In this document: positions 2,490-57,502 of the stretch, piece after piece | How positions within the stretch are numbered: the stretch's first letter is position 1 | Layout: the number at the start of each line of letters is the position of its first letter | Source of the DNA: Bryoerythrophyllum caledonicum | Lineage: Eukaryota > Streptophyta > Bryopsida > Pottiales > Pottiaceae | Assembly: GCA_963971425.1 (NCBI GenBank) | Contig: OZ020525.1 | Location: forward strand, 9,283,560 to 9,347,559 | DNA length: 64,000 nucleotides | Reading direction: 5' to 3' | Position numbers and translations under genes: made by a program | The notes under the pieces: model-generated | The model's input: the letters and a program-made list of their open reading frames with translations, nothing else | Databases searched by the model: none | Told to the model about the DNA's origin: nothing

Positions 2490-3249
2490 TTCCCCATAGT
2501 TCCCCACCGTGCTCCCAATTGTGTTCCCCAACGTTCCCATCGGTCCCAATACGTTCCCCATGTCCCCAAAGAGTTCCCAAATTCACATTTACACTGGGAA
2601 CCAATTTATACTTTTATATATTTTATCCAAATTTACCTTTAGTTTAGTGGGGCCCACCACACTGGTTGGGGCCCGAACGCAGGCTCATCCGCACACATGT
2701 GCGTGAGCTTATTGTACGTGATGGTATCCATGCTTTTGCCAAGATCCGTCAACTCTTTCCAGCACCCTCCCAAAGGCTTTGAACATCCCTATTGGTAACC
2801 ACAACATCCTCCGATGCTTTGCACGGTCCGATCGACGGACGGGATCAGTCAGGATCTGAACGGTGCAAGCCCGTCTTAGACCGAAATCATCACCATCATC
2901 ATCACGCTTTTCACAATGCTCTTATTCGCGACTGCTTACAATAACATCCACATGCCCCAAGTGGACGGCGACGGATTCTTTCAACCAGAATGCACCACCT
3001 GCAGCGTGTACGTGCAACGCCCAGGACAACAGACCACTTGGCATACAAACGGCTGCGGAAAATCGAAACCAATCCACAACTTATCTGAATGCCGCACGAA
3101 AAAACACCTATAAAACGCCATCGCAGCTGCGGAGTGAATAATCAGTCGAGTGTGATCAGTCGAGTGTAATCGAATTCTCACAACTTTCGGACGAGTTGGC
3201 AGTATCATTTGTCTTTGTCGTTTATCCTAGATCTCTGCAGCTAGCAGCG
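2490..3249 (+). promoter_or_regulatory. Upstream region of LEA-like copy 1
   Basis: A C-rich array of about ten GTTCCC(C/A) motifs lies at 2485-2600. Two ACGTG cores, the centre of abscisic-acid response elements, lie near 2717 and at 3010-3014. A CCAAT-like motif is near 3070 and a TATA box (TATAAAA) is at 3109-3115. With the TATA box about 135 bp before the ATG, transcription would start near 3140. ACGTG cores suit a stress-induced LEA gene, but short motifs alone are weak evidence. The block is near-identical in copy 2; copy 3 keeps only the proximal part. Confidence 0.55.
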
Positions 3250-4057
3250 ATGGCGGCCTTGATGGCGAACGCGAACGTTGCAGTGTCGATGAGCAGCCTG
3301 AGCTCCGGCGCGAGTTTGAGTGGCGTGAGGTTGACGCCCGCGACAGTGAGCTTGCGATGCGCTCCGGTGCGGTCGCGCCTGGTTATGGTGCGCGCGGAGG
3401 AGGGAGTGACGGAGCAGGTGTCGAACGCGGTGGAAGGCGCCGCGAACAAGGTGAAGGACACCGCGGGAGCCGCGAAGGGGAAGGTGGAGGACGCGGCCGG
3501 CGCGGCCAAGGGCAAGCTCGAGGAGGCCGGCGATTTCATCTCCGGAAAGGCCGACGAGGCCGGGAGCAAGGCGAAGGACGCAGGCCGCGACGTGGAGGGG
3601 AGTGCGAAGAGCGCCAGCCGTGACGCTCGGGGCGAGGCGGAGAATCTCGGCGTAAGGATCAGCTCTCCTCGTTTTCGTGACCGTCGCCTCTCTTCTTTAG
3701 AAATATTAGTGATGCAGCTCATGTTTTGTGAAACTTTGCCTTATCATCCGCATTGCTTGCTGAGAAACTATGTCTCCTTTTGTTGTTTCTTGGCACATGT
3801 CTTATGCTGCTCATGATGCTCATTTTCTATGATATTTGAATTAGTTCTTCCGTTTTTTTTGCTGAGAAATTATGTTTTTATATTTATTTTGTTATCAGGA
3901 CAAGGCGCAGAATGCGTTTGAGGACGCAGGCGACTCGGTGAAGGACGCCGGGAAGGACGCGCAGAGGAAGGCGGAGGACGTTGGCGACGCCGCTAAGAAG
4001 ACGGCCCGTGATGTGAAGCGCGATGCGGAGAAGGGAGCTGATCGCATTTCCAACTGA
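3250..4057 (+). CDS. LEA-like plastid-targeted protein, copy 1 (two exons)
   Basis: Exon 1 is 3250-3651, a phase-0 GT-AG intron is 3652-3898, and exon 2 is 3899-4057, giving 186 residues. The first ATG (3250) is chosen; the frame extends upstream only to a TTG. Residues 1-47 are rich in Ala, Ser, Val and Arg, lack acidic residues and end VMVRA, typical of a chloroplast transit peptide. The rest is Ala/Lys/Asp/Glu-rich with loose 11-residue repeats (AAGAAKGKVEDAAG, KADEAGSKAKDAG, DSVKDAGKDAQRKAED), the pattern of group-3 LEA proteins. Those are disordered, fold into amphipathic helices on drying and protect membranes and enzymes. The role here is inferred from composition. Base use is GC-rich, unlike the surrounding AT-rich elements. 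Confidence 0.85.
3652..3898 (+). other. Intron of LEA-like copy 1
   Basis: The donor GTAAGG follows a Gly codon and the acceptor is TTATCAG before GACAAG. The intron is T-rich (247 bp) and phase 0. It is identical in copies 2 and 3, although introns normally drift faster than exons. Confidence 0.85.
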
Positions 4058-7142: not shown

Positions 7143-7615
7143 CTTAAAGTCAAATCTATGTATTCACATTTGCAAAAAATGTAGCATGTTGTTACAAAAG
7201 TAAATGTTTCTATATGTTAATGCATACAAAAATGCTAAAAAAACAATTTCAAACCTTTGCAAATGACTTTGAAAAATTACAGGCAACAATTATATAAGTA
7301 AAGAATGAAACTTGGGATGGTAAAGAGTTCAAAACTAACACATATATGATTAAAATATATTTTGATAGCTTAATAATGATAGAACTATTTTATGCCAAAA
7401 CATTTATGACATCATGGAAGTTGTAGTCATAAAAATGGACATTGGTAAATCAATACAAAATTACATGCACCAAAATGATTTTTGAAAACTCAATACTACT
7501 TATAATCATTTGAAGTTTAAGAAAAAAAAGACATAACAAAGTATTTCAACAATTTTTATTGAATTCAAACACTCAATGTAAAAGTTATAGGTTTTCAACA
7601 TTGAGAGCAATCTAA
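7143..7615. other. Intron remnant of the Myb-like gene and left LINE target duplication
   Basis: AT-rich and noncoding. On the minus strand it lies between an acceptor-like site at 7143 and the LINE, with the rest of the apparent intron at 21377-21422. The last 12 bp (7604-7615, AGAGCAATCTAA) are the left target-site duplication of the LINE. Confidence 0.6.
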
Positions 7616-10610
7616 GATGTCCAGCCGCAATAGGGAGATGAGGAGAGAGTAGCTCCGCAAAACCTGGTGAGGAGGGGTTTTTAGGTGTTAGGCGCAAACT
7701 AGGCACACAAGGCAATGAGAACTGTTGGGCCTCATTGCAAATCCCTCTATGTGACTTGTTTGCTGCTAAACGGTGTTTCTAGGATGTGGGGTGTGTTGGA
7801 AGGGATTGCAAGATTTAGATCTTTTGGCATAAGCTTGTATGGGTTGCAAAGATCTAGCACTAGTATGGGAGAGTAGATCTGAAGTGGGGCTCTGTGTTGG
7901 CCCAGATCTAGCACTAGATCCCGCATTACTCATATCAACTCTTGCACAAACAGATCTAGATCTGGATACCATACCACTAGTTAGAAACACCAGACCTATC
8001 ACCTCCTCAACTAAGGTACAAGCACATGCATATGAAGAATGACCACTACCCACAATGCGCACGAGATCAACGCCAAGTTACAAGATACAAGCAAGAGGTG
8101 CAACACTTCTCAAATCCAGCTAAGTTTGCTATGTATATTCTGCATTTTGATATGTCACAACATTACACTTACAAGGATGTTAGGAATGTTCTGGTTGCTA
8201 GCGCTATTGATGTCTGCATGCCTGACCACCGACTCAAGAGGCCACATAGCTACAGCTGCAAAGGAAGAACACTAGGAGCATACAAACGACACTATGCGAA
8301 GAACCACTCATTGAAGATCGCCGAGACCCCACCGCACACTCCCGACAAACCTGTGACACCAGCACCACGTCGACATCAATATTTCGAGATCAATCAAGCC
8401 ATCGCCGTATGCACAAGAATGGACACCAAACACAACGCCACAAGATCATCATCTCTCGTCAAGGTAAGTATTCTTACCCCCTTTCTATTCATAATATATT
8501 TTCTCCCATTTTCCTCCAGAAAATACTGCAACCTCTGCTGCCAAGCAGCAATCAGCAGAAGAATACGACGACGAAGAGTACATGAGCTGACAGGAAGAAA
8601 TACAACGAAGAACAAGATCCCTCTACAACCAGCTTCGAAGGTAGCACAAGCCTCTAGGTTCCATACCTTGCAAGACTCCACTAAGCAACCACCACAATGA
8701 CAATACCACTCTCAACACCAAGCACATCAACTGCATGACATCAACAACAACAAAAATTCAAGACACAAAACGAGCATCAGGTATGCACATACTTAGGTAC
8801 GCAACCTTACCAGCACTCCATCCCCTTCCCCTTGTACTAGGAGACCACCGCTAAATACTGACAGCAGGCTAGGAATGACCAAGGACACACAACACAAAGG
8901 AAAACATGGCCGACCACATCAACAGAGACGAAACCCTAGGCGCCACGACAACCTAAACGAAGAATCCACAGAAAAGCAAGATCCAAATCTCCACCTGAGT
9001 CATCTCAATCGACTAGCTGCAACCCAACGACTACCTGGAGCAGCTGAACGACCAAAAGACCAAATTCAAAGACGTTCATCGACCACAACCACATCCATCA
9101 AACACCAGCACAACACAAGGTATATATCACGTCCTAATCCCACTCCCAAACCCTCTTACATTGCTCTATTTTTTAAACACCCACTCCCTGCGTTGTGGAC
9201 ACAACGCAACATTCGAGCATCCCATAGGATAGACACGTACGTGCAAGAAGACGAGGAGCACCGGAGGAAGAGAGGGCCGAGATTCGCACGCCCAACTTCG
9301 ACACTCCTCGCTAGTGAAGAAAAGCCTACTCCCTCCCTGATTCATTTGATATCTTTTGTCTGGCTTGTTTGTGTATTGACTCACACTAACTTTACGTTGG
9401 CATGCCCGACACAGCTATTGCGACACCTGCAAACAACAAGAAAGAGATCGTGCAAGTCAGACGACGTCCCACAAGCATCATACGTAAGAGCGAAAGACAA
9501 ACAAGGTGGAGCCAACAAGACCTACCGCCGGAGTACGCAGCAGACCCCCACGAAGCCCCGACCCAAGATTTGGAAGCGGCTCAACCCGAATCACACATCC
9601 ACAACTATAACTCGGCGCATCGATTCGAAGACAGCGCTGCAACCACAGATCTGGTACTTGCACAATGTGGAGGGAAGCACGCACGAAGCAGAAGCTGAAG
9701 AACGCAGGGAGGGCAGAACTCGCAGACGAGATCTCAGACAAGAAGAAACCAAGAAAGAGATGAGACCCTAGAGTCCGGAGTCAACAATTCGTAAGCCCGG
9801 AGACGCGACTCCACACGACAGCCAAAGACGGAGAGGGAGCTCGCACAGGGTGGAGAGTTTGCAGCAGCAAACTACCTTGCTGCAGCGATCAAACCAACAA
9901 AGCGGACAGAACCCGCTGCAAAGGAAGCCCCCGCATCCTACACACAGGCGGAAGATACGAGTGAAGATTACCTGGCCAGCCTGAGCCCGACCCCTGCCTC
10001 CAAAAACGAGCGGTACTCTGAGCGCAACGAAGTTGTAGAACCTCAAGAGAACCCGCACCCAGCTGCCACCAACGGCTACCAACGACCCGCAGAATCCTCG
10101 CAGCCCAAAGAAGGTGGAGAACACCCTTGCCTGCACTCATTCGCAGCCAAGTGCGGCCAGTCGCCAGCAAAAACGCCGCACCAATAGCCCGCACAAGACG
10201 GCGAAGACTGTGAGCACCCCCTCCCGCACCCTGTCGCAGCCAACGGCTTCGAGAGAACCTAAGAACCGGACGAAGCTACAGCGACTCGAAACTGGGAGAC
10301 CCCTAAACCAACAAGACGAGGGTTTCAAAGGAGAACCTGCACCTAAAACTGAGGGCAAGCAATTCGAGACTCCCGAACCAGGGAATAACCAACTAGCCCG
10401 AGAACCTGTGTACGACCGTCCACAACCACCAGCACAACTCCAGCCTCAAAAACGTACCTCAAGTTCGTGCTATATCACACAAGGTGTGATTACTTAATTA
10501 GGTCATTCCCCTCTCACACTCTCTTTACAGTTTATTGATCTCTATCATCATTGGGGTTATTGTGCAACCCCATGGACATGTAAACCACTTTTAAAATTTA
10601 AACCAGTTAC
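7616..10610 (+). other. Long 5' leader of the LINE
   Basis: About 3 kb lies before ORF1. Open stretches at 8026-8700 and 8875-9771 exist but look like composition-driven frames (Arg, Thr, Pro, Gln-rich, no domain), so I do not call them genes. A cluster of AGATCT motifs lies at 7811-7961, including the 13-mer GATCTAGCACTAG twice (7851 and 7905). Several stretches look like introns: CAAGGTAAGT at 8460 to TTCCTCCAG at 8520, and ACAAGGTGTGATT at 10481 to CTCTTTACAG near 10529. They could be promoter, leader or captured transcript. Confidence 0.45.
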
Positions 10611-10778
10611 TTGGGAGGTGACCAATACTTTGGCACCTCCCATGTGTGTGTATGTGCAAAGGTCAATGTATACCACTTTCAATCTTTAGGTAATAGGTCA
10701 GTCAATTGCTTGTATCCCACCATTACTATCACTCTCCACCCTTTCTTGCTAACCTTAACTTCAAAAAGCCCTCAACAC

Positions 10779-12461
10779 ATGTTGGGGGGAGAAGTTAAGA
10801 ACAAGAGGATAAGGGGTACTATTGAGACAATATGCTCCACTCTAATTAACACTTTTGATCTTGATTGCTACAGCATGTCCCAACACCAAGATGTTGCTGC
10901 CTCCTCCAAGCGCTTGTTTGTTGATGTGGTAGAAGGAAATTCTTGCCCAGTAAATGTCAGTCAATATACTTTAGCCATCACAAACACCACCCAGAAAAAA
11001 GTGAAAGCAACAAGTTTGCCTTACACTGAATTCTGGCTTGGTTTCCACACAATGAATATAATTGCAAAAGAAAATGGGAGTTATAAAATTCCAATCGTTA
11101 GCATTGAGAAATTGGTCAAGTCCGGCCTAAATGGAAAAGAAGCTTTCGAAAGCTTCGAAGCAATGCCTACCTACCCATTCATCCCCCAAAATGAATGGCC
11201 ATCCAAAAGAGGAGATGAGAAAGAGGGGAACCATTTCAATCTCACTCAACTTCCAAGTGAAGTTGAGGTAGAAAATAATGGCTATGCATTGGATTACCAA
11301 GTTTCAATCCATTTTGAACTTGGGGAGCAAATATGGACGAAAGATATCGTCCTAGATATGGTAAAAAATAGATTAAAAGAAATGGACATTCCCACTGGGA
11401 CAGGCATTGGTGAGCCTATAGCCATCTTTTGCTACCACCAGTCCGATAATTGGAATGGGGTCCTTAAGCTACACCTAAAAAATCCGGTTGTAGATGGGAA
11501 GCGACTATTGAATGGGATAAGACCTTTCATTCTCATCTTGAATGAGGGAATCCCACACAAGGGGAAAGTATGCAAATCCTACGATTCCCTTGCCTTCTCA
11601 CATCTACTTTTGGTCAAAATCTCTGGTCCAAATCTTGTCAATAAGAAATCATATGATTTACATGCAGAAATTGTAAGAGAAAGTTTCGCCAGGGGTCATG
11701 ACTTTGAAGTGATAGGGGTAGAAAAGAAGACTTTCTCAGAATTTGCTTGGGTGAAAACTCCCTCACCGGAGCAAGCAGCCAAAGTAAAAGACTTTAAAGT
11801 CTCATTCTACAATGAGATTTTTTTGCCAATTTTTGCAACTCGGAAAATGGATGAAGATGAAATTGTAAAAAAGAATTGTCTCATCCTCATCGCTAAAAAC
11901 CTCAATAAAACGGAAACAGAAAAAGAACTTGGAGATGGAATCAAGTCCATTCTCGGTGAGGAGAATGTGGTTGATATATTCTTCAAACTTGAGCATGGGC
12001 AACATGTAGGGACTTGTAACATTGAGTGTCTAAATGCGGCAGTATATAAAAAGTATGTCAAGCAAAGTAAAAAACTTCATGGCAAATATGTCATGTTCAC
12101 CCCTCACCCAAAAAGTTTGGATGGAAGTAACAAACCAAACACGGATGAACTTACAAGGTTAGGGTTCTCAGATGTAAACGCAACAGTAGTAAATGCCGTG
12201 ATTGCCATGGAAAATGGACCAAACAAGGGAAACGGAGTTACATTGGACCAACTTCGTAAGGAAATGAAGACCATGAAGAGAGAGATCGTGCAAGAGGCAA
12301 GACAATATGCGGACATGGTACAAGCAAACACGGTTAAATCCCTCAGGGGAGAAATGTCAACTCTTCGATCTCAACTTATCCAAACTATCATGGCAGCAGA
12401 GTCACAAGCATGGGAACGGGAACAACGCGCCATAGAGGGTAAAATGGACACGTCAAACTAG
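10779..12461 (+). CDS. LINE ORF1 protein (RRM-like, C-terminal coiled coil)
   Basis: The frame is open from 10611; the ATG at 10779 (561 codons) is preferred because the upstream part looks like leader, and 10875 is another candidate. No family is recognised with certainty. The segment at about 11860-12110 reads like an RNA-recognition fold: a first strand LILIAKNL, then helices, HVGTCNIECL in the RNP1 position and KYVMFTPHPKSL as last strand. A second, weaker one lies near 11340-11630. The last 75 residues (LRKEMKTMKREIVQEARQY onward) form heptads typical of a coiled coil. LINE ORF1 proteins trimerise by a coiled coil and coat the RNA. Unlike ORF2, this frame has no stops, which is notable in a dead copy. 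Confidence 0.7.
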   Translation: MLGGEVKNKRIRGTIETICSTLINTFDLDCYSMSQHQDVAASSKRLFVDVVEGNSCPVNVSQYTLAITNTTQKKVKATSLPYTEFWLGFHTMNIIAKENGSYKIPIVSIEKLVKSGLNGKEAFESFEAMPTYPFIPQNEWPSKRGDEKEGNHFNLTQLPSEVEVENNGYALDYQVSIHFELGEQIWTKDIVLDMVKNRLKEMDIPTGTGIGEPIAIFCYHQSDNWNGVLKLHLKNPVVDGKRLLNGIRPFILILNEGIPHKGKVCKSYDSLAFSHLLLVKISGPNLVNKKSYDLHAEIVRESFARGHDFEVIGVEKKTFSEFAWVKTPSPEQAAKVKDFKVSFYNEIFLPIFATRKMDEDEIVKKNCLILIAKNLNKTETEKELGDGIKSILGEENVVDIFFKLEHGQHVGTCNIECLNAAVYKKYVKQSKKLHGKYVMFTPHPKSLDGSNKPNTDELTRLGFSDVNATVVNAVIAMENGPNKGNGVTLDQLRKEMKTMKREIVQEARQYADMVQANTVKSLRGEMSTLRSQLIQTIMAAESQAWEREQRAIEGKMDTSN

Positions 12462-12718
12462 CATTGCCAAACAACGCTGCAATAAATAAATACACTAAAG
12501 TATATATATATATATACTATAAAAGTATATTTACATACTACTAAACAAGGAAAAAAAACTACTACATGAATTTAAACAACAACATAAATGAAAACAACAA
12601 ATATATTATAGCTCATATGTACGAAATACATATCATAGAAATACAAAAAAACTACAAAAATATATGTAAAAAAAAATATAAAATAGTTTATCTATATAAT
12701 ACTAAAGAAAAACAAAGA
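12462..12718. other. AT-rich gap between ORF1 and the AAC tract
   Basis: The gap is A-rich with short TA repeats (TATATATATATATA near 12502). No gene or motif is recognised. Confidence 0.6.
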
Positions 12719-13158
<440 letters not shown>

Positions 13159-13299
13159 CACAAAAAGAAAAGAAAATACAAAAACAACAAAACAACAAAA
13201 CAACAAAAACAACAACAACATCAACAACATCAACAACATCAACAACATCAACATCAACAACAACAACAACAACACTCCACACCCTTCCCTCTAGTAGCC

Positions 13300-13383
13300 A
13301 TGAACATTACTCACTACAAACTATTAATTATACTTTGCGGAGACATAGAAACTAACCCCGGCCCAATGCCAAATGTCTTCTAG
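13300..13383 (+). other. N-terminal 2A-like ribosome-skipping motif
   Basis: Codons 13300-13380 give a short hydrophobic leader (HYKLLIILC) followed by GDIETNPGP, with D-I-E-T-N-P-G-P at 13342-13365. This matches the 2A consensus D(V/I)ExNPGP at every position, and 2A peptides are preceded by just such a hydrophobic helix. In 2A peptides the ribosome omits the Gly-Pro bond, releasing the upstream part. Some APE-type LINEs carry 2A motifs at the very N-terminus, where they can double as a signal sequence. A TAG stop follows five codons later at 13381. Confidence 0.85.
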
Positions 13384-14016
13384 AACCATCCAGAAACACA
13401 CAAAAGATTATAAAAAATATATTTTATTCCGAATACTATAAAACTCCACCCCGAATATCAACACCTAGCATCTTCCTTTGCACCACTTCTAAAAAATAAT
13501 CACATACTTCACCAAACTTACTCCATCCTCTACCCCAACATTTCTCACTACATACACTAAAAAAACAACCACCCACCCACACATATCTTATTCACCATAA
13601 TTACCACCCTCCACCCATCAATAGACGAATGCAACAATATCATTAACCATCATTCTACCAACACAAACCCAACACATTGGACAAATATATTACTAAATAC
13701 CCTATCCTCTCTACATAATCCCCCTGAAAGACATATAGATACACTCCACCCATACACCAAATTCCTAGAGGAAAACCAACACCTTTTTGAACACAAAACC
13801 TCGCTAAATAAAGACCTATACAAATTTATTCATAGCCAAACCCCACCCCCTTCCCCCGATGAACTACAACTAAAATTTTCCTACTTCCCGCACAATCTTA
13901 TCCTTGAAGCTCTTAGATGTTTCGAACCAATCCATGCTTACACGCACCCCACCCTGACACCCGCCCATATCTCCCCTCCACTTTGTAACCACCACAATAT
14001 AGACAATAGAAACACA

Positions 14017-14790
14017 TGTATAACTACATGGAACGCCTCAACCCTAAAAACTACCTTACCATGCATCCACAATCTAACCGCCCACACCAACACCCCGCCG
14101 GCCATAATTGCCATACAAGAAACTAAACTAACCGCTACTAAATCCACTAAATACATCCAAAAAACATTCCCCGATTATAAACTTATATTTATTAACTCTC
14201 ATTCTCTCACACGATGCATCCAACAACAAAGGCCATATACACCGGCAAGAGGAGGTCTACTCATGCTCATACACCAATCACATGCCTTCCTCGGGAATAT
14301 TACTAAAATCCCCACCCCGGCTAATATATCACCATATCTTCAAATTATTGAAATTACTAACCGACCCCTCCAACCATGGCTCATTCTCCATCTATACATG
14401 CCCTCACACATAGAAGACTCTAGGCTTATTCCGGAGATCCAAAATTCCATCACTTCACAAATAACTATACACACTAACCATACAATAATACTTTGCGGAG
14501 ACTTTAATTGAGATATTGCCCTTATTGGACGACAAAACGGAGAGGTCTTTACCCCCCCACTTGACATAGACTATCAATGGCAAAATTATACGGATAACCT
14601 AGAATTATTTTTAATCCCAACCAATATACAATACTCTCGTCAAGGTGGACTTAATTACACACACACTAGCCTAATTGATGGATTTTATATTAAAACACCT
14701 AACCATACCCAATATACATCTATCACCAATACCACAACCAACTTAAACTCGGACCACTTCCCAATCCAACTTAACATACCTCACAACACC
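14017..14790 (+). other. APE-type endonuclease domain of ORF2
   Basis: The exonuclease-endonuclease-phosphatase motifs are all present in one frame: TWNAS at 14023, IQETKL with the catalytic Glu at 14112-14129, LHLYMPS near 14383, CGDFN with the catalytic Asp at 14494-14508, SLIDGFYI at 14668-14691 and NSDHFPIQL with the catalytic His at 14746-14772. This enzyme nicks the target strand to prime reverse transcription. A TGA at 14509 interrupts it directly after GDFN, where Arg is usual. Confidence 0.9.
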
Positions 14791-15671
14791 CTTATAAGTA
14801 GACCTTCCATAGCCATCAACTCAAATGTTATTAAAATACTAAATCCCATCCCAAAAGAAAACCTTGATAACTTTAATACAATATTCTTTGAAAAAAACTC
14901 CCTACAAATAGACTCCCTTACAGATACTCTTTCTAACCACCAACACCTCGCACACATACAATGGCAAGAAGCTTGCAGGACTCTTGACAAACTTATCAAT
15001 GAAATCTCTACTACATTAGAAAAGACTTGTAAAGCGCCCCCGATTCCACAACTCACTCCTAGAACCTCGAAACAAGGTGGGTATCTCCCAAGAAAATTAG
15101 CCAAAAAATGGAAACAACATCTTGTCACATACCACACTATTCGTAAAACAATTTATATTGCTAAAACTAACCAAAACTGGCGAATCCACCCCATACTCTC
15201 CGAACTACAAAATCTCCGTCACCTCCAAATCCCACAAGTACCACCATCCAACACCCCTCACGAAGACTGGCTAAAAGACATTGCAACCATTGCAAAAGTT
15301 GCCAACAAAGAAGCTCGGAAAATTACTACAAAATATACAAGAGAATGTGTCAAAAAAGCCATCTCTAAGTATCGTCAACTATACGAAACTAGCCCAAAAA
15401 AGATTAATAGAAAAGTCTTTAAAATAATACAAACCTGCCACTAGACTGCATTTTAGATCAAAACAATAACATTCTAACTTGCCCAGAGGACATTGCAAAC
15501 GAAATACATTTCCAACAATCCATAAAGAATAGACCATCCACCCCCCCATGTCACTTCCAACCACAACATACATCAACATGCACGTGCGGAGTTAGGCAAT
15601 ACCCGTGGCATGATTTGGACGGATTTACCATTGATAAAAGAGGAGAACCAACAACACCTCTCCACACATAT

Positions 15672-16445
15672 TATAACAGAGACAAGAAGAAGAAGAACGC
15701 CGGTCCCCGAAAGGGGCCCGCGTGAATAAAGTGTCCGTTCATTCCACCACTAATTCCATACCCACCGGGCATGGGTTAGTAGTATGGAACTACTTTGCCC
15801 TTTCGAGGGAGGACACTATGAACCCAGTAACCAATACCAAAAGACCCAAGGTCCCAAAAGTCTCTAAAAGAAGGAGGAAGTGTATGAAGAAAGATGCAAA
15901 TGCAGGTTTATGGAGGGGGGTTTGATGCGTCAGGAAGGGGTTGGTTGTTTTCAAGTTTTCGTTTATGCAGGAGTATTGACATAGCATGTTGAATTGCAAT
16001 AGTGTTAATATTTAAAAAGGTGGTTTTGATTGAAGTGATGGGGATTTTAAATGTGTCTTCAAGGGTTGTCATTGAGGGAATGAAGGTGGTGGCTCTGGCA
16101 CCCGCGGTGATGACAATAAGGGGGTCTACTTTCCATCCTAGTGCTTGAATATCGTCAAGTAGTGGTTGGTGTTTGTTTGTTTTGTTTGCAATAGTGTGCG
16201 GAGAGAATCTGTCATTGCAATATGTGAATTCAATAAAGTGAATAGTGAGACTAGGGTCTATGTGGTTTGGTGGGGGGTCTTTGTATGAAAGTCCTCTAAC
16301 ACATAATAGATCCGGTTTGAATCTTGTATTGCAATGACATTTTAGAGTGTGACAAGTGCATGGTAATAGCCAAGGAGGGACCGTATTTTCTTGTGGGTTG
16401 TCATTAAAGGTTCCGGCATTCATGAGAATGAATATAACAAAGACA
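15672..16445 (-). mobile_element. Nested 5'-truncated copy of the same LINE family, inverted
   Basis: 15685-16432 is the reverse complement of 20614-21364 with scattered differences and includes the 3' tail (GAAGAAGAAG at the left end). It is flanked by a 13-bp duplication, TATAACAGAGACA (15672-15684) and TATAACAAAGACA (16433-16445), one mismatch. It is therefore an independent target-primed insertion of a 748-bp, 5'-truncated copy into ORF2 of a sister element. Confidence 0.95.
15908..16423 (-). CDS. RLE domain fragment carried by the nested LINE copy
   Basis: An uninterrupted 171-codon frame covers most of the restriction-like endonuclease. It contains RFKPDLLCV (the KPD motif typical of R2-type RLEs), FIEFTYCND (the acidic residue after the strand) and KTNKHQPL (the K..KY position, Tyr changed to His). 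It lacks the upstream zinc knuckle. It is a truncated 3' end and is probably not expressed, but it shows what the family's RLE looks like with less decay: the outer copy has KSD in place of KPD. Confidence 0.8.
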   Translation of the reverse strand: MNAGTFNDNPQENTVPPWLLPCTCHTLKCHCNTRFKPDLLCVRGLSYKDPPPNHIDPSLTIHFIEFTYCNDRFSPHTIANKTNKHQPLLDDIQALGWKVDPLIVITAGARATTFIPSMTTLEDTFKIPITSIKTTFLNINTIAIQHAMSILLHKRKLENNQPLPDASNPPP

Positions 16446-17420
16446 CTTATAACATGTGCCTAAAAAATTTGGGAACCAACAAAGCCCCAAGCCCGGACCA
16501 TATACCTAACTCAATCCTAAAAAATATGCCCCCTAGAATCCATGACCTTCTATCATTATTCTTCCTTCATTGTTACAAACAAAAATCCATTCCCGCATCT
16601 TGGAAAACAAGTTTTACAATCTTACTATACAAAAAAGGCAACCCATCCGTGCTACCTAACCATTGACCGATTGCCTTAGCTAACACCATTTACAAATTAT
16701 ATACTAGCACACTAACATCAATATTATCGGCCTACGGAGAAAAACACCAAATATTACACGAAAGCCAAGAAGGGTTTAGAGCCGAGAGAAGTACCACACG
16801 GCAACTTCAAACCCCCATTGCAGCTCTTAAGGATGCAAAATTCACTAATAAAGACATTTATATACTCTACATTGACTTCAAAAATGCATTCCGTTCCATT
16901 GACCATCCTCGATTGCTAGCCATTATGAGCGATCTCGAGTACCCGGAAGACGCAGTCACATTGGTTGATAATATATACTCCCAATCTACCACTACATACA
17001 CTAGAGAATTCTTTGGTAACACACGCCCTATCCCCATCCAACGTGGTACCATCCAAGGCGATACATTGAGCCCATACCTCTTTATTATTTTTCTAGAACC
17101 TCTATTGAGATGGCTTCAAAGAGGTAATAATGGCTACACATTTGGTACCTCAAAAGTAACCATAAACTCGGCCGCATATGCCGACGATCTAGCGGCCATC
17201 TCAGGACGTCTTAAATCACTCCAAATTCAATTAGACAAAATAGACAAATTTTGTCTATGGACCGGGATGGAACTTGGGGTCCAAAAATGTGCCGTAACTG
17301 GATGCCCTAACAAATCCAAAATAAACCCGACCGCCTTCAAAGCCCTTATCCAAGCTACCAATATCCAATATCGTAACCAACCAATTCCGGTTCTAAACCA
17401 AAACCAACCTTACATATACC
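16446..17420 (+). other. Reverse transcriptase domain of ORF2
   Basis: The LINE RT blocks appear in order: NKAPSPDHIPN, SWKTSFTILLYKKG, a stop at 16664 within N-H-stop-PIAL, ESQEGFRAERSTTRQL, IDFKNAFRSIDH with the first catalytic Asp at 16874, GTIQGDTLSPYLF at 17044, and YADD at 17177-17188 with the catalytic Asp pair. GMELGVQKCAVTG and an IYLGI motif (about 17412) lead into the thumb. Apart from the one TGA the frame is open to 18088. Confidence 0.95.
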
Positions 17421-18869
17421 TCGGAATAAACCTAGTCCCATCGTTAAAATGGAAAATTCAAATTCACGCTTCTACTACAAAACTTATTAAACAATGTAAT
17501 GAACTTACACTATGTCCGGCCACATTGCAACAAAAAATAAAAATGATTGACACCGTCATACGGCCAAGTATCTCATATAGTTTCTATGTGGTCCCTTATT
17601 CCATGCCCCCCATAAACAAACTTGATAAAAAAATCATAGCCATACAAAAGAAAGTATGCGGACTCCCTAATTGTACGCCCAATGTCATAACACAACTCCC
17701 CCACGAACTATTCGGATTAGAAGCTTTTTCCCTCAAAAATGCCTATCTACGTTGCATTGGAGAACAACTCCAAAATGCACTTAACGACAAGGGACGACTA
17801 GGACTAATTTACAGTGGACTCCTTCCGCACATCCTTGCCATTTATGGAGGAGCACAATACCTCCAAAGATTTAAAAAATTGGATTGCCTTCGGTCTCCCA
17901 TTACCCGCACACTTTTTCTACTTAAAACAGAAGGCCTAAAAGGCACACTAGAAGATTTCCTACTAGGCCCCGCGCCACTTGAACAAAATTGGGCAGATGA
18001 AATACGTAACCTCCCTAGACTGGACCAACAATTATCCGCCAAACTCCTACAAAACCTTTTCTCCGCAAACATTACTGATCTAAAATAAATTACACTACCA
18101 AATGGAACACACCTTATGGACGACAAGAGCTACAAAACATTCTACGGTACCCCTCACAAATTAATAAAAAGTGCACTAAATACTATTTTGTCAACTGCCA
18201 TGCCTCCCTATATGCCCAAACCCTTGCACCACCCATGCCCCACCTTACACACTCAAAGACCCGTACATCATTGGTCAAAATGACATCCACCCCAACATCA
18301 ACCTCCCATTAACCTCCCCCAACCCGCCACATTCACGACCATATGCCCCCCCACCACATATATTAAAAAATCCTTCCATGCACCCAATAAACAACATAAC
18401 CGGGCACAAACATAGAAAGTACATTGACTCTAACAACATAAGCAAACAATACACATCATACCTATGCCATTGGTCCCACAATAACACCACCTACACCAAA
18501 TGGCTCCCGCAAAGAAATCTTTTTCCTTGGCACAACCCAAACGCTTCCTCACAAAACACCGAAATCCTCACACAATACTACCTTAGAACCCAAAACAGTT
18601 ATTACTCAAATACCATACAATTACACCACCCCCAAGCACAACCTCGAGATAGCAGATTTGTCACGCCACCTATTAGTATCCCCCTCCTTAACATCTTTAC
18701 AATCGAATGCAACCCCGAAACTGACATCCTCGCACAAACAAATACAATCAAAATACCACAAGATAATGCCCGCATATACGAAAGTAATGATAGACATCTA
18801 ATAACCATACCACTCGCTAGACTACAATGGTTGTGGAACCAGTATCACAATGTATTACAAACCCCCATT

Positions 18870-19610
18870 AACATTGAACCAATACCCCAAACATTTGAAA
18901 CCGAAATTGTTTGGCTATATCAAAGATATAAGTACCGAATACCCAAAAATGACCCCCTTAAAAATGCACACTACACACTACCCGATCCTATCTTAGACTA
19001 CCTTATTACATCTCTAAATATCACACATTCATACTTCTCATCCCCCGTCACATGCTCCACAAAAATCTCAAAATTCTACTCTCCATTCGAACGTGATAAG
19101 ATTTTCGGTTCTCTTGGTAAAGCTTTTGATTATAGATGGAGTGGAATAGGCCTTGCACACCCTCACAACAAAGAAGAAACACAACAAGCAACACATTGGG
19201 CACGCCTAGCAGCAAACAATGATCCCAACCACAATATCACCATTATTATTACTCCCGACACCCATTGGTACCACAACTCTAACCCACACTTAGGCCCATT
19301 CCCGGACTCCCACATCATAGTACTATTTGAAGCGGACTCTATGACTTACAAAGAACCCACTATACCACCACAAATACAAACACCCCGCCTTGAACCAGCA
19401 ACCCTACCTATTCTATGTATACATCACCAAACCCAAGAGATAGGTACTCTAGAAAACCTCAAACATCTCACTTTGATAGCAAAAAATCTAAAAATTAACA
19501 AGGTACACACCGCAATTGTCCCTCCCACACCTGTTTCAATCCGTATAAACCGTAACAAAAAATGGTCTAAAACCCCCACACAAACATCTCCGCACTACCA
19601 GCTACCGAAT
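18870..19610 (+). other. ORF2 segment resembling an adenine-methyltransferase fold (tentative)
   Basis: This lies between the RT thumb and RNase H. It reads YFSSPV, then FYSPFERDKIFGSLGKAF, W-SGIGLAHPHNKEETQQAT, then a hydrophobic strand TIIITP. The spacing FGSxG..F...SG...(N)PPF..E...AT resembles PCIF1-like and retroelement-borne N6-adenine methyltransferases. The catalytic (D/N)PP(F/Y) would be replaced by HPHN, so any activity is doubtful here. This is a pattern resemblance read by eye, not an established domain. Confidence 0.35.
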
Positions 19611-19639
19611 TGAGCCTCCCTCTCCCCCACTACCAAATC

Positions 19640-20095
19640 AATACCGTCCTTAAATTTGATCCCAACTTTAGCTACTATACTGACGGTTCCTTTAAAAAAC
19701 CAACCGAAGTAAGCCCGGGCCATTGGCACCTAGAAAAAGCCGGTTATGGGGTATACAATTCAACCAAACAAATAAAATTAAGCAAAAGACTACATGGACT
19801 CCAAAATATTGTAAGAGCCAAAATGATGGCTATACACAAAACCCTTAGGATAATCACCACTCAATACCCAAACAAACCGGCTCACATTTTTACAGATTGC
19901 ATAAATGTACTATATCTCCTTAATACACACATAAAACACCCTACTTTACACAACAGTCACCTGGACAAAACTATCCTCACATCCATGGTTGTAATGCTCC
20001 AAAATCGCACACAAATTACTACACTCCACAAAGTCCGAGCTCATGCTAATATCGACGGCAATGAACAAGCCGACAAACTAGCAAAGGAAGGAAGA
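19640..20095 (+). other. RNase H domain of ORF2
   Basis: Motifs of RNase H1 are present: YYTDGSF with the first Asp (19682), VRAKMMAIHKTL where Glu is expected but AAA (Lys, 19820-19822) is found, IFTDCINVLYLL with the second Asp, and HKVRAHANIDGNEQADKLAK with the His and last Asp. The domain would remove RNA from the hybrid. The Glu-to-Lys change should abolish it. RNase H is found in several plant and algal LINE clades. Confidence 0.85.
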
Positions 20096-20454
20096 GAAAA
20101 AACCCACAAGAATGCCGAACACCCACACAAACACGCCCATGCCACCCCATATTACTTTCATAGATATGAATGGCCTTCTATGGGCGAAACCCCCGATAAA
20201 GGCCCCATACGATTCTTGGACAAATACCTCATAAAACATGATCTTGTAAATAACCTGGTAAAACTTACAGAAAACTTCCCCAATATTGATAAATGGACCG
20301 GCAACCCAAATATTCACAACGCATTGTCCAACAATTTTTGGAAAACCTCATAATTATGGATCCACAAATCACATGCCTAATCAAATTCCGCAGCGGACAA
20401 TACATGGGAAATGCCCGCAAACAACTCTTCTTCGGAATAGAAAGAATTCCTACA

Positions 20455-21138
20455 ATAACATGTCCAATTTGCAACACCACAGACCTGGACACATGGCTAT
20501 ATGTCTTGCTCAGGTGCCAAAACCCCCATATACACTCACTAATTGTCAAAAGACACAACAAAGCGGTATGGGCTATTCGCAAACTACTTGTATCATCAAC
20601 CAAATCTCGGTGCTTCATTCTCATGAATGCCGGAACCTTTAATGACAACCCACAAGAAAATACGGTCCCTCCATGGCTATTACCATGCATATGTTACACT
20701 CAAAGATGCCACTGTAATGCAAGATTCAAATCGGACATACTATGTGTTAGAGGACTATCATACAAAGACCCCCCACCAAACCACATAGACCCTAGTCTCA
20801 CTATTCAGTTCATTGAATTCACATATTGCAATGATAGATTCTCTCCGGACACTATTGCAAACAAAACAAACAAATACCAACCACTACTTGACGATATTCA
20901 AGCACTAGGATGGAAAGTAGACCCCCTCATTGTCATCACCGCGGGTGCTAGAGCCACCACCTTCATTCCCTCAATGACTACCTTTGAAGAAACATTTAAA
21001 ATCCCCATCACTTCAATCAAAACCACCTTTTCAAATATTAACATTATTGCAATTCAACATGCTATGTCGATACTCCTACATAAACGAAAACTTGCAAACA
21101 ACCAATCTCTTCCTGACGCTTCGAACCCCCCGCCATAG
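20455..21138 (+). other. Zinc knuckle and restriction-like endonuclease (RLE) of ORF2
   Basis: The frame opens with TCPICN (20458), a TW-L-VLLRC segment whose usual His is Tyr (TAT), and KRHNKAV, which matches the CCHC knuckle plus RHN of R2-type LINEs. It continues with RFKSDILCV (KPD expected; the nested copy has it), FIEFTYCND and KTNKYQPLL, the acidic and K..KY positions of the PD-(D/E)XK core, then GWKVDPLIVITAG. RLE domains nick the target in R2-like elements. Its presence beside an APE domain in one ORF places the element with Dualen/RandI. Confidence 0.85.
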
Positions 21139-21364
21139 TCTTACACTTACATCTCACTATACACGGCCTCCGTCTTTTGGAGACTTTTCGGGACTTTGGT
21201 CCTCTGTTCTGGCTATTGGTTACTGGTTACATAGTGTCTACCTTCGAAAGGGAGAAGTAGTTCCATACTACTAACCCATGCCCGGTGGGCATGGACTTAG
21301 TGGTGGAATGAACGGACATTTAATTCACGCCGGCCTCCTCTGGAGACCGGCGTTCTTCTTCTTC
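21139..21364 (+). other. LINE 3' UTR with two hairpins and TTC tail
   Basis: Hairpin 1 is at 21276-21294 (CCATGCCC, loop GGT, GGGCATGG). Hairpin 2 is at 21328-21352, with 11-bp arms and one mismatch. The TTC tail is 21353-21364. The nested copy has the same layout with paired changes in hairpin 2. Such 3' structures are read by the element's own reverse transcriptase in several LINE groups. Confidence 0.75.
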
Positions 21365-21422
21365 AGAGCAATCTAAAAATGTCGGTAAAAGAAAATTTAT
21401 CTAAATTGAATGAAGAGCATAC

Positions 21423-21870
21423 CTTGCTAGCACTCCTCTCAAACTTTGCAAGCATTTCACCTTGAATTGTATTAAGTTGCTCAACGTCACTATCGGGCCA
21501 ATTCTTCTTCTTCAATCTTCACCTTTTGGCTTTCTTCTTGGCTAGAGTTTTCTTCTATGTAGATCCACCTCTTCCCTTCTTTGTCGGTTCAACAATTTAA
21601 CATGTTCCTCTACTTCCTTCCCTCCAACGTCCAAATTGTTCTCACACGTTTCACTTTCTCCAATCAAGGCACTAGGGGTTGAAGAAGGATGTTGAATGTA
21701 GGACCTGAAGGCACTCTCATTTTGAGTTGGAGGACTGAAAAAATCCTCATACCCACATATTCTTGGCTGCAAGTGAACGGAAGTTGCAAGAAACTAGCCA
21801 TCCTTAGGGAGAAATAGTAACAAATATTAAACTTCTTCCTGGAACACAAGCTCCACAACCATGTTACTGA
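21423..21870 (-). pseudogene. Myb/SANT-like Harbinger accessory protein, 5' exon
   Basis: The minus strand reads GYEDFFSPPTQNESAFRSY, then, after a frame change, a basic stretch and WPDSDVEQLNTIQGEMLAKF, ending SASK just before a GTATGC donor at 21422. This suits the N-terminal half of the Myb-like protein whose 3' exon is at 6706-7142. At least one frameshift is present. The true start is not visible. Confidence 0.5.
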
Positions 21871-25029: not shown

Positions 25030-25787
25030 CCCCATAGTTCCCCACCGTGCTCCCAATTGTGTTCCCCAACGTTCCCATCGGTCCCAATACGTTCCCCATG
25101 TCCCCAAAGAGTTCCCAAATTCACATTTACACTGGGAACCAATTTATACTTTTATATATTTTATCCAAATTTACCTTTAGTTTAGTGGGGCCCACCACAC
25201 TGGTTGGGGCCCGAACGCAGGCTCATCCGCACACATGTGCGTGAGCTTATTGTACGTGATGGTATCCATGCTTTTGCCAAGATCCGTCAACTCTTTCCAG
25301 CACCCTCCCAAAGGCTTTGAACATCCCTATTGGTAACCACAACATCCTCCGATGCTTTGCACGGTCCGATCGACGGACGGGATCAGTCAGGATCTGAACG
25401 GTGCAAGCCCGTCTTAGACCGAAATCATCACCATCATCATCACGCTTTTCACAATGCTCTTATTCGCGACTGCTTACAATAACATCCACATGCCCCAAGT
25501 GGACGGCGACGGATTCTTTCAACCAGAATGCACCACCTGCAGCGTGTACGTGCAACGCCCAGGACAACAGACCACTTGGCATACAAACGGCTGCGGAAAA
25601 TCGAAACCAATCCACAACTTATCTGAATGCCGCACGAAAAAACACCTATAAAACGCCATCGCAGCTGCGGAGTGAATAATCAGTCGAGTGTGATCAGTCG
25701 AGTGTAATCGAATTCTCACAACTTTCGGACGAGTTGGCAGTATCATTTGTCTTTGTCGTTTATCCTAGATCTCTGCAGCTAGCAGCG
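25030..25787 (+). promoter_or_regulatory. Upstream region of LEA-like copy 2
   Basis: Matches 2490-3249 with no difference that I could find: C-rich GTTCCC array, ACGTG cores (one at 25548-25552) and a TATA box at 25647-25653. Confidence 0.55.
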
Positions 25788-26595
25788 ATGGCGGCCTTGA
25801 TGGCGAACGCGAACGTTGCAGTGTCGATGAGCAGCCTGAGCTCCGGCGCGAGTTTGAGTGGCGTGAGGTTGACGCCCGCGACAGTGAGCTTGCGATGCGC
25901 TCCGGTGCGGTCGCGCCTGGTTATGGTGCGCGCGGAGGAGGGAGTGACGGAGCAGGTGTCGAACGCGGTGGAAGGCGCCGCGAACAAGGTGAAGGACACC
26001 GCGGGAGCCGCGAAGGGGAAGGTGGAGGACGCGGCCGGCGCGGCCAAGGGCAAGCTCGAGGAGGCCGGCGATTTCATCTCCGGAAAGGCCGACGAGGCCG
26101 GGAGCAAGGCGAAGGACGCAGGCCGCGACGTGGAGGGGAGTGCGAAGAGCGCCAGCCGTGACGCTCGGGGCGAGGCGGAGAATCTCGGCGTAAGGATCAG
26201 CTCTCCTCGTTTTCGTGACCGTCGCCTCTCTTCTTTAGAAATATTAGTGATGCAGCTCATGTTTTGTGAAACTTTGCCTTATCATCCGCATTGCTTGCTG
26301 AGAAACTATGTCTCCTTTTGTTGTTTCTTGGCACATGTCTTATGCTGCTCATGATGCTCATTTTCTATGATATTTGAATTAGTTCTTCCGTTTTTTTTGC
26401 TGAGAAATTATGTTTTTATATTTATTTTGTTATCAGGACAAGGCGCAGAATGCGTTTGAGGACGCAGGCGACTCGGTGAAGGACGCCGGGAAGGACGCGC
26501 AGAGGAAGGCGGAGGACGTTGGCGACGCCGCTAAGAAGACGGCCCGTGATGTGAAGCGCGATGCGGAGAAGGGAGCTGATCGCATTTCCAACTGA
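25788..26595 (+). CDS. LEA-like plastid-targeted protein, copy 2 (two exons)
   Basis: Exons are 25788-26189 and 26437-26595, with a 247-bp phase-0 intron between them. The 186-residue product is identical to copy 1: transit peptide ending VMVRA, then Lys/Ala/Asp/Glu-rich LEA repeats. The duplicated block (about 25028-26783) matches copy 1 over about 1.75 kb, with a single difference noticed, in the 3' UTR. It lies 22.5 kb downstream in the same orientation. Either a recent duplication or ongoing homogenisation explains this. Both promoters look intact, so both copies could be expressed. Confidence 0.85.
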
Positions 26596-35578: not shown

Positions 35579-36098
35579 ATCCATGCTTTTGGCACGATCC
35601 GTCAACTCTTTCCACCTCCCTAAGGCTTTGAACATCCCTATTGGTAACCAAAACATCCTCCGATGCTTTGCACGGTCCGATCGACGGACGGGATCAGTCA
35701 GGATCTGAACGGTGCAAGCCCGTCTTAGACCGAAATCATCACCATCATCATCACGCTTTTCACAATGCTCTTATTCGCGACTGCTTACAATAACATCCAC
35801 ATGCCCCAAGTGGACGGCGACGGATTCTTTCAACCAGAATGCACCACCTGCAGCGTGTACGTGCAACGCCCAGGACAACAGACCACTTGGCATACAAACG
35901 GCTGCGGAAAATCGAAACCAATCCACAACTTATCTGAATGCCGCACGAAAAAACACCTATAAAACGCCATCGCAGCTGCGGAGTGAATAATCAGTCGAGT
36001 GTGATCAGTCGAGTGTAATCGAATTCTCACAACTTTCGGACGAGTTGGCAGTATCATTTGTCTTTGTCGTTTATCCTAGATCTCTGCAGCTAGCAGCG
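35579..36098 (+). promoter_or_regulatory. Upstream region of LEA-like copy 3
   Basis: From about 35665 to the ATG it matches the other copies, including the TATA box at 35958-35964 and ACGTG at 35859-35863. The outermost 80 bp (35579-35660) differ at several positions and small gaps, and the distal C-rich array is absent. Confidence 0.55.
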
Positions 36099-51620: not shown

Positions 51621-51990
51621 ATAACCACAATATATTGAGAGTCCTAACCAACATCAAATAAACAAAAAACATATACTAAAATAAGTATACGTAGTACAAC
51701 CTCAGAGAATAACTAGTAAATCACAAGAGTAGTCAAGCGTCTCGCACTCCACAAAGGGAGAATCAACGAGTGCAAGTAGTGTAAGAGAATGTGGAGTTTT
51801 TACTAATGATAAACAATCACTTACAAGCAAAGATAATCACTAAACGCTCTCTAACTCACTCACAAAGCTTGACTTGACAAAGACGTTACCAAAATGAGTT
51901 TCTTTCTGCCATCACTGGCATACCACCCATGCCTTATCTAGGCCTCCTACGTCAAGTTCTCCACCTTAGTAGATAAAGCGCTTGCTGACC
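51621..51990. other. Unrecognised AT-rich segment
   Basis: No coding signal. It could include an LTR piece, but no partner is visible. Confidence 0.4.
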
Positions 51991-52418
51991 CGGCCCAGAT
52001 TCCTTGTTTTTTTAGGACATCAAGCTGAACAGGTGAGGACGTAGCCGGATCCGCGTAGACATCCACGAAAACGTCCTAACACTTGAGACGTCAAAAAGGA
52101 CAGCAGGATTTTTTAAATGACGTCTCGGAGAACGTGCCCCTGCCACGTCAGCGCAAGGGATTGTTCCCGCTAGTCTTGACGGGCAGGGGGGCAGTCCTCA
52201 CTTTTTCAAGAGTGAATAAGGGCGTGGCACCTCTTTCTCTCTCTCTCTTTTTTTTTTTTTTTTTCTCTCTCTCTCTCAGCTCGCTAGGATTTGTGTCTCT
52301 CTCTCTCTCTCTCTCTCTCAGCTCGCTAGGGTTTGTGTCTCTCTCTCTCTCTCTCTCTCAGCTCGCTAGGGTTTGTGTCTCTCTCTCTCTCTCTCTCTCT
52401 CTCAGCTCGCTAAGATTT

Positions 52419-52462
<44 letters not shown>

Positions 52463-55989: not shown

Positions 55990-56009
55990 CGATAATAATG
56001 TAACTTCTA

Positions 56010-57495: not shown

Positions 57496-57502
57496 AGTGT
57501 AG

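What the first reader, a model, noticed from the sequence alone, without database searches (positions are those of the whole stretch)
7616..21364. A Dualen-like LINE carrying both APE and restriction-like endonucleases in a plant-type genome
ORF2 has a complete set of APE motifs before the reverse transcriptase (QETKL, GDFN, IDG, SDH) and, after RNase H, an R2-type knuckle with RHN and a PD-(D/E)XK core (KSD here, KPD in the nested copy; E; K..KY). Dual-endonuclease LINEs (Dualen/RandI) were described from green algae. A full-length copy with a 12-bp target duplication in a genome rich in plant-type CACTA, Harbinger and copia elements would extend that group.
Basis: partly seen in the sequence, partly recalled or inferred. 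Interest (0 to 1): 0.92.

Follow-up and report, generated by a model that had tools for sequence, protein, structure and literature searches.

The report
Dual-endonuclease plant LINE with cap-methyltransferase-like domain
This is a broken but full-length copy of a jumping gene that carries two different DNA-cutting enzymes, and near-identical unbroken sisters show that the family is young; the surprise is a further part, related to the enzyme that marks messenger-RNA caps, which nearly all of the relatives that could be checked also carry.

Summary
Window 7616-21364 is a full-length, decayed LINE with a 12-bp target duplication, APE endonuclease, reverse transcriptase (RT), RNase H and an R2-type restriction-like endonuclease (RLE). 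The RLE model's five best PDB matches are all R2, though none reaches E 0.001. Its RT groups with green-algal elements of Dualen architecture, 100/100. The host has TTTAGGG telomeres and holds open sister copies; six differ by 0-3 nt in 9,855.

(1) Between RT and RNase H lies a domain related to CAPAM/PCIF1, the mRNA-cap m6Am methyltransferase (Pfam E=4.8e-10; six best PDB folds all CAPAM). Of 91 RT-selected Dualen-type relatives with at least 700 residues after the RT, 90 have it; of 45 with both endonucleases, 45. In this family the catalytic NPPF reads HPHN, yet dN/dS is 0.21 (one pair): kept, probably non-catalytic (inferred). (2) A StopGo/2A motif (DIETNPGP) lies in frame about 215 residues before the APE, here and in all nine sister copies read, so ORF2 protein is probably released by ribosome skipping.

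Dualen-group member, new variant; functions inferred.

The parts
7604..7615 (.). target-site duplication, left copy AGAGCAATCTAA
   Evidence: exact 12-mer also at 21365-21376; 0.0018 expected in 13 kb by base composition
7616..21364 (+). whole LINE copy, Dualen group, decayed
   Evidence: TSDs; 5' and 3' ends shared with sister subfamilies
7616..10601 (+). 5' region; its first ~170 nt share AGCTCCG, CTGGT and GTTAG with sisters A and B
   Evidence: three sequences
10602..12461 (+). ORF1 (stop to stop, 619 aa); no Pfam match over a cut-off, no PDB match; 32% over 491 aa with ORF1 of sister B
12721..13150 (+). (CAA)n / Asn-rich spacer between ORF1 and 2A (limits approximate)
13300..13365 (+). 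StopGo/2A-like stretch MNITHYKLLIILCGDIETNPGP, in the frame of the APE 215 codons downstream, now cut off from it by stops
   Evidence: same place in 9 of 9 sister copies read
14011..14790 (+). APE-type endonuclease (in-frame TGA at 14509-14511)
   Evidence: Exo_endo_phos E=0.0018, below the cut-off
15672..15683 (.). target duplication of the nested copy, left (TATAACAGAGAC)
   Evidence: read by eye
15684..16432 (-). nested, 5'-truncated, inverted copy of the same family (3' end, KPD-type RLE)
   Evidence: 541 nt 92% and 151 nt 89% complementary to the element's own 3' end
16433..16444 (.). target duplication of the nested copy, right (TATAACAAAGAC, 11 of 12)
   Evidence: read by eye
16445..18085 (+). 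reverse transcriptase (in-frame TGA at 16664-16666)
   Evidence: RVT_1 E=2.3e-27; trees
18354..18626 (+). small beta-beta-beta-alpha domain, perhaps chromodomain-like (weak); some relatives have a PHD finger in this interval
   Evidence: model secondary structure; Chromo sub-threshold; PHD
18744..19589 (+). CAPAM/PCIF1-like methyltransferase-fold domain; PF12237 match 18885-19256
   Evidence: E=4.8e-10; 43 of 43 rows of A1, window included; Foldseek top six all CAPAM
19158..19169 (+). HPHN, at the place of the catalytic NPPF of CAPAM
19670..20095 (+). RNase H (RAK instead of RAE in this copy)
   Evidence: PF00075 E=3.4e-12
20461..21110 (+). CCHC knuckle, RHN and PD-(D/E)XK restriction-like endonuclease (KSD here)
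21139..21364 (+). 3' UTR with (TTC)n tail; last 165 nt strongly conserved
   Evidence: mean column identity 82% over window, nested, A and B
21365..21376 (.). target-site duplication, right copy

Best explanation
A dead, full-length copy of a Dualen-group LINE whose family moved very recently in this genome. Shown by sequence: in the window copy and in sister subfamily B an ORF1 (sister A has none inside its target duplications); a low-complexity spacer ending in one or two 2A motifs; then one protein (2,341 residues in A and in B copy C4b) with APE - RT - beta/alpha domain - CAPAM-like domain - RNase H - knuckle - RLE; a conserved 3' UTR with a (TTC)n tail; target duplications of mostly 12 bp. 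Inferred mechanism: the ribosome skips at the 2A and frees ORF2p with an N-terminal proline. ORF2p binds the conserved 3' UTR of its own mRNA and starts reverse transcription at a nick in the target (target-primed reverse transcription). APE and RLE divide the two strand cuts, or the RLE with its knuckle mainly binds target DNA; which does which is unknown. RNase H removes the template. The CAPAM-like domain, kept by selection but without NPPF in this family, most likely is a non-catalytic RNA-binding part, perhaps gripping the capped 5' end of the LINE mRNA so that complete transcripts are copied to the end.
For: Domains. RT set with Dualen-architecture algal elements. Recent activity: 150 PF12237 matches scored in the genome, 42 with E=4.0e-11 and 50.6 bits, 33 of those in an open frame of exactly 3,087 codons (my recount); six of these differ by 0-3 of 9,855 nt. 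TSDs of 12 bp in 5 of 6 A copies and 12, 12, 13 bp in three B copies. 2A in frame in 9 of 9 copies. dN/dS between A copy C8a and B copy C4b: RT 0.06, RLE 0.09, RNase H 0.11, APE 0.12, CAPAM-like 0.21. NPPF changed to APPA or SPPG is the standard inactive PCIF1, and its helical domain binds the m7G cap (PMC10544176, passages read).
Against: No activity was measured. CAPAM's cap-binding helical domain was not shown to be present; the Foldseek match spans 265 columns at TM 0.38. dN/dS rests on one pair of copies. One of six A copies shows no TSD. Of the nine copies read, C15b ends 67 codons early, C2b is interrupted, and C4b has QRD where A has QGD in the RT, so fully motif-intact copies were seen only in A. 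22 of 83 wider relatives read NPEY, which might be catalytic. Pfam finds no APE in the A piece at E<=0.05.
Confidence: 0.85

Rival explanations
1. The CAPAM-like domain is an active adenine methyltransferase that marks the element's own RNA cap (m6Am) or its new cDNA, protecting it from decapping or host recognition.
For: PCIF1/CAPAM is the cap m6Am writer (PMC10544176). Of 83 wider relatives 22 read NPEY, 2 HPPF and 1 SPPF at the catalytic place. Adenine methyltransferases occur in DIRS and cytosine ones in LINE, DIRS and Gypsy elements (PMC5890265, passages read).
Against: In the window's family 65 of 121 rows read HPHN, 107 of the 112 filled rows begin with H there and none reads NPPF (9 rows hold a [DNS]PP[FYW] string somewhere else); changes at the same Asn and Phe inactivate human PCIF1.
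Confidence: 0.2
2. The CAPAM-like domain is a relic without function.
For: Catalytic motif lost; weaker constraint than RT (0.21 against 0.06).
Against: dN/dS well below 1; 90 of 91 testable Dualen-type relatives retain it.
Confidence: 0.08
3. The element is an ordinary plant L1 and the RLE motifs are chance, or two elements were fused by nesting or misassembly.
For: The window copy is broken and holds a nested copy; holding its RT with human L1 is not formally rejected (AU p=0.06).
Against: RLE fold matches R2; 45 relatives hold APE and RLE in one protein; 33 copies in the genome share one 3,087-codon frame length.
Confidence: 0.02
4. RLE is the working nuclease and APE a leftover, or the reverse.
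For: PMC4640811 (passage read) holds that APE-type LINEs arose by replacement of RLE by APE, which allows redundancy.
Against: Both are under similar purifying selection (0.12 and 0.09) and the motifs of both are present in the two copies checked.
Confidence: 0.15

Closest known systems
Dualen/RandI group of LINEs (Chlamydomonas and other green algae; LINE/Dualen also annotated in cryptophytes)
   Same: APE before RT, RNase H and RLE after it; RT in one set with Haematococcus, Pleodorina and Parachlorella elements
   Different: No Josephin/OTU-type cysteine protease in the window, A or B pieces scanned; 2A before ORF2p; CAPAM-like domain, which my profile also finds in 4 of 5 Haematococcus proteins but which no paper seen here describes; (TTC)n tail, where the 8 green-algal RandI families tabulated have (ATT)n or (CTATTT)n (PMC3747384, tables read)
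R2 LINEs
   Same: C-terminal knuckle and RLE with matching fold
   Different: R2 has no APE, RNase H or CAPAM-like domain (recalled)
CAPAM/PCIF1 cap m6Am methyltransferase
   Same: Methyltransferase fold, FGSxG region aligned
   Different: Embedded in a LINE; NPPF replaced by HPHN; no WW domain reported by Pfam at the N-terminal side
StopGo/2A in non-LTR retrotransposons (Trypanosoma L1Tc, sea urchin; PMC4981915, passages read)
   Same: D(V/I)ExNPGP within a LINE protein
   Different: Here in a dual-endonuclease LINE of a plant-type genome; PMC12846837 (passages read) found no natural StopGo use by plant viruses
DNMT-carrying retrotransposons (Symbiodinium LINE and DIRS, Klebsormidium Gypsy; PMC5890265, passages read)
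   Same: A retroelement that took up a methyltransferase
   Different: Cytosine DNMT, in ORF1 of the LINE; not CAPAM-like

Membership tests
Dualen group (PMC4640811: LINEs encoding both APE and RLE) | APE upstream of RT | tested here: met
   motifs in window and in two sister copies; Pfam scores below the cut-offs
Dualen group (PMC4640811: LINEs encoding both APE and RLE) | RLE downstream of RT | tested here: met
   alignment, fold (top five R2, none at E<=0.001)
Dualen group (PMC4640811: LINEs encoding both APE and RLE) | RNase H in ORF2 | tested here: met
Dualen group (PMC4640811: LINEs encoding both APE and RLE) | RT in the Dualen clade, apart from R2 and L1 | tested here: met
   (100/100); references were algal elements of Dualen architecture, not the original Chlamydomonas sequences; L1 alternative AU p=0.06; long-branch warning
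Dualen in the narrow sense (Chlamydomonas) | cysteine protease (recalled from the 2005 description; paper not held) | tested here: not met
   no protease by Pfam in window ORF1/ORF2 pieces or in A and B pieces
L1 | RT in that clade, no RLE | tested here: not met
   RLE present; RT apart from human L1 (AU p=0.06)
RTE | RT in that clade | not tested
   no RTE sequence in hand
CAPAM/PCIF1 family | methyltransferase fold (PF12237, which PMC7641849 identifies as CAPAM-like methyltransferase; passages read) | tested here: met
CAPAM/PCIF1 family | catalytic NPPF | tested here: not met
   HPHN
CAPAM/PCIF1 family | m7G-cap-binding helical domain | tested here: inconclusive
   fold match 265 columns, TM 0.38
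StopGo/2A | (D/G/C/N)(V/I)ExNPGP in frame before a downstream product | tested here: met
StopGo/2A | ribosome skipping activity | not testable with these tools
   needs a translation assay

The most novel reading that the evidence does not exclude
A CAPAM/PCIF1-derived domain is a standard, overlooked part of the whole Dualen group (APE - RT - PHD or chromo-like reader - CAPAM-like - RNase H - RLE). In the plant family it has lost catalysis and reads the capped 5' end of the LINE's own mRNA, so that only complete, capped transcripts are copied and inserted full length, while a chromatin-reader slot and two nucleases choose and cut the target.
Probability: 0.25. Interest if true: 0.9.

Novelty: new variant of a known kind. 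Interest (0 to 1): 0.8.

Why it matters
Dual-endonuclease LINEs are read as the bridge between RLE-type and APE-type LINEs (PMC4640811, passage). A family with dozens of open, near-identical copies in one plant-type genome makes the old question 'what does each nuclease do?' testable with natural proteins. The CAPAM-like domain is, as far as the listings show, not described in a retrotransposon; its presence in nearly all testable relatives suggests that handling of the mRNA 5' end may belong to how these LINEs insert complete copies. 2A in a plant-genome LINE would be a natural use of StopGo where plant viruses show none.

Tried and rejected
Chance RLE similarity: rejected by the 24-row alignment and the R2 fold matches. 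Misassembly or fusion: rejected by 33 genome copies with one frame length. TGA read as Arg, since two in-frame TGA sit where sisters have Arg: not favoured, because the sisters have AGA and AGG there and end with TAA and the window copy also has TAA/TAG stops; a genome-wide code test was not made. Chromodomain in the beta-beta-beta-alpha slot: only 1 of 16 members (E=0.015) and one A copy (E=0.045), no PDB sequence match; kept as a guess. Known ribozyme at the 5' end: no Rfam match at E<=1 in 7500-21500, and in two sister loci only one miRNA match far below its cut-off. RLE and CAPAM-like region by sequence against PDB: R2 not found for the RLE profile, CAPAM only at E 0.16-0.21, so folds were needed. 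Relatives in viral contigs and genome contigs: none confirmed. ORF1 against PDB: none. Second structural comparison (pdb_via): not available. Host by a plant gene family (PF03514): not completed; telomere repeats used instead.
Full report
THE OBSERVATION. The element lies at 7616-21364, flanked by AGAGCAATCTAA at 7604-7615 and 21365-21376; by base composition 0.0018 exact matches were expected in the 13 kb upstream. On the + strand there are ORF1 (10602-12461) and pieces of ORF2: 13561-14511, 14512-15444, 16667-18088, 18180-19613, 19571-20353 and 20293-21138. An inverted nested copy of the family's own 3' end sits in ORF2, with an 11-of-12-bp target duplication that I read by eye.

THE RLE IS REAL. 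A search with the RNase H-RLE end of a relative gave 34 proteins. I aligned 22 of those 34 with one protein and the window (24 rows): the knuckle cysteines, RHN and the D, E, K and KY of the nuclease core are invariant or at least 90% conserved; the P of PD is present in most rows. The window copy has KSD; most relatives and the nested copy have KPD. The predicted structure (mean pLDDT 68, 24 sequences) has five R2 retrotransposon chains as its best PDB matches, E 0.0017-0.0054, probability 1.00; no match reaches E 0.001. A sequence profile of the same alignment did not find R2 in PDB.

THE RT PLACE. A search with the RT region among proteins of suitable length gave 130 hits, 120 listed. Those named by organism are green algae (Parachlorella, Haematococcus, Pleodorina) and, at the far end, the oomycete Globisporangium. 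Haematococcus P0217 has Josephin, APE, RT and RNase H by Pfam and the RLE by my profile, which is the Dualen architecture; Pleodorina P0248 has Josephin and APE and ends in the RT. A quick tree of 69 chosen rows and a careful tree of 26 chosen rows both put the window with these. In the careful tree the 19 Dualen-type rows form one side of a branch at 100/100, with R2, Globisporangium-like, two unnamed and human L1 rows outside; the program warns of long branches meeting there and of human L1's odd make-up, and in the quick tree of the window's make-up too. Joining the window family to R2 is rejected (AU p=0.0004); joining it to the very long human L1 branch is only marginally disfavoured (p=0.06). 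A profile of 15 relatives scores R2 above L1 in PDB for the RT (279 against about 186 bits).

THE CAPAM-LIKE DOMAIN. A search with 18180-19610 gave 122 homologues, 120 listed. All 43 rows that I aligned and scanned (42 relatives and the window) match PF12237; they were chosen by similarity to this region, so this shows identity of the domain, not its frequency. The model (pLDDT 80) has the six CAPAM/PCIF1 chains as its best matches, E 1e-9 to 5e-8, then a gap to 0.02. By sequence alone CAPAM is at E 0.16-0.21. PMC7641849 (passages read) states that PF12237 is not a WW domain but a CAPAM-like methyltransferase. To ask how common it is I used the RT-selected set: 120 proteins, 114 without the six most distant. 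A first profile built from family members found it in 83 of 120; a second profile built from those 83 found it in 96 (E<1e-3), among them 4 of 5 Haematococcus proteins at 1e-28 to 1e-30. Of 91 Dualen-type proteins with at least 700 residues after the RT, 90 have it (the exception is P0259); of the 23 shorter ones, 6. Of 45 with both APE and RLE by domain score, 45 have it, each in the order APE, RT, CAPAM-like, RLE. An earlier count with the first profile and other thresholds gave 43 of 46, in that order in 41 of 43. Reversed sequences gave nothing better than E=0.29, and the six distant RT proteins nothing significant. The set was gathered by RT similarity to this window and capped at 120, so it is not an unbiased sample of the Dualen group, and no original Chlamydomonas sequence was in hand.

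ITS ACTIVE SITE. CAPAM's NPPF aligns with HPHN. In the 121-row alignment 65 rows read HPHN, 107 of 112 filled rows begin with H there, none reads NPPF, and 9 rows are gapped; in the wider set of 83, 22 read NPEY and the rest are mixed. In human PCIF1, NPPF changed to APPA or SPPG is used as the inactive form, and the helical domain binds the m7G cap (PMC10544176, passages read). Between copies C8a (A) and C4b (B), dN/dS is 0.21 for the domain (RT 0.06, RLE 0.09, RNase H 0.11, APE 0.12); window against C8a gives 0.16 with near-saturated dS. I infer a kept but probably non-catalytic function.

Between RT and the CAPAM-like domain the model shows three strands and a helix. Chromo is hit only weakly and not by sequence in PDB. 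In 4 of 4 relatives chosen because a PHD finger was listed for them, the PHD finger lies in this same interval. Other relatives carry OTU, Josephin or a cytosine DNA methylase.

SISTERS AND 2A. In the window's own genome (437 Mb, 894 contigs) PF12237 gives 150 scored matches among 2,614 candidates, so counts are lower bounds; by my recount 42 share E=4.0e-11 and 50.6 bits, and 33 of these lie in an open frame of exactly 3,087 codons. I read nine copies: six of that subfamily (A) and three of another (B). Frames: 3,087 codons in all six A copies; 2,881, 2,814 and 2,359 in B copies C4b, C15b and C2b, so C15b and C2b are not whole. The six A copies differ by 0-3 nt in 9,855. In all nine a DIETNPGP motif lies in frame before the APE; the three B copies have two in tandem. 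The stretch after the last 2A is 2,341 residues in C8a and C4b; the twelve APE, RNase H and RLE motifs that I checked and YADDL are present in both, but C4b reads QRD where C8a reads QGD in the RT. TSDs are 12 bp in 5 of 6 A copies, none found in C4a, and 12, 12 and 13 bp in B. The window's ORF1 is homologous to B's ORF1, 32% over 491 aa, E=3.6e-72; the A elements have no ORF1 match inside their TSDs, while ORF1-like sequence lies in the flank of two of them, C8a and C10a. Window ORF2 DNA is 68-71% identical to A and B, so the window copy belongs to another subfamily. The 3' end is strongly conserved and ends in a (TTC)n-type tail in the window, nested, A and B copies. A 2A motif also occurs in 6 of the 120 RT relatives, one of them from Haematococcus, several hundred residues before the APE.

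HOST. Of 14 chromosome-end stretches read, 8 hold long TTTAGGG arrays (70 or more tandem pairs), 5 hold 1-5 and 1 none; this repeat is the green-plant type by common knowledge. The gene-family search for the host did not complete.

LITERATURE. Dualen as the APE+RLE group: PMC4640811 (passages). Core-Reinhardtinia: PMC8226300 (passages). Cryptophytes: PMC12747079 (passage). Green-algal RandI 3' repeats: PMC3747384 (tables). DNMT-carrying retrotransposons: PMC5890265 (passages). StopGo: PMC12846837 and PMC4981915 (passages). The 2005 Dualen paper and the 2013 2A-LINE paper are not held. Searches listed no paper that, from its listing, reports a PCIF1/CAPAM domain in a retrotransposon; only the best 10-25 of each were listed and the library lacks most subscription journals, so this is weak evidence of absence.

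VERDICT. The finding stands and is larger than stated: a Dualen-group LINE in a plant-type genome, from a family that moved very recently, with a CAPAM-like domain that seems general in the group and apparently unreported, and an ORF2 protein probably released by 2A.

Noticed in passing
window 3142-3816, 25680-26354, 35991-36665: Three places with a 224-aa ORF and opposite-strand ORFs of 172 and 151 aa at the same offsets, so probably one repeat; no Pfam match for the + ORF of the first or the - ORF of the second. Sequences were not compared.
   Followed up: partly
window about 50700-62100, - strand: Ty3/gypsy-type pieces: RNase H, integrase zinc-binding, RT and CCHC knuckles.
   Followed up: partly
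P0218 and P0262 (relatives): Dualen-type LINE proteins with a CAPAM-like domain and also a C-5 cytosine DNA methylase after it; in P0262 it lies before RNase H.
   Followed up: partly
P0181, P0178, P0203, P0250 (relatives): PHD finger between RT and the CAPAM-like domain.
   Followed up: partly
P0259 (relative): The only long Dualen-type relative in which no CAPAM-like domain was found; outermost of the Dualen-type rows in the 69-row tree, on a long branch, and listed with the Ulp1 protease model PF02902.
   Followed up: no
L019-L022 (C2a, C4a): Flanks of these A copies hold pieces of other copies of the same family; C4a lacks a recognisable TSD.
   Followed up: no
L013, frame starting at 5014, residues 613-641: A second, decayed 2A-like stretch (LLILIGGDINTRPN) in subfamily A that aligns with the stretch before B's second 2A.
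   Followed up: no
P0053: A piece of this LINE family is filed under a Candidatus Nitrosocosmicus MAG, presumably eukaryotic contamination.
   Followed up: no
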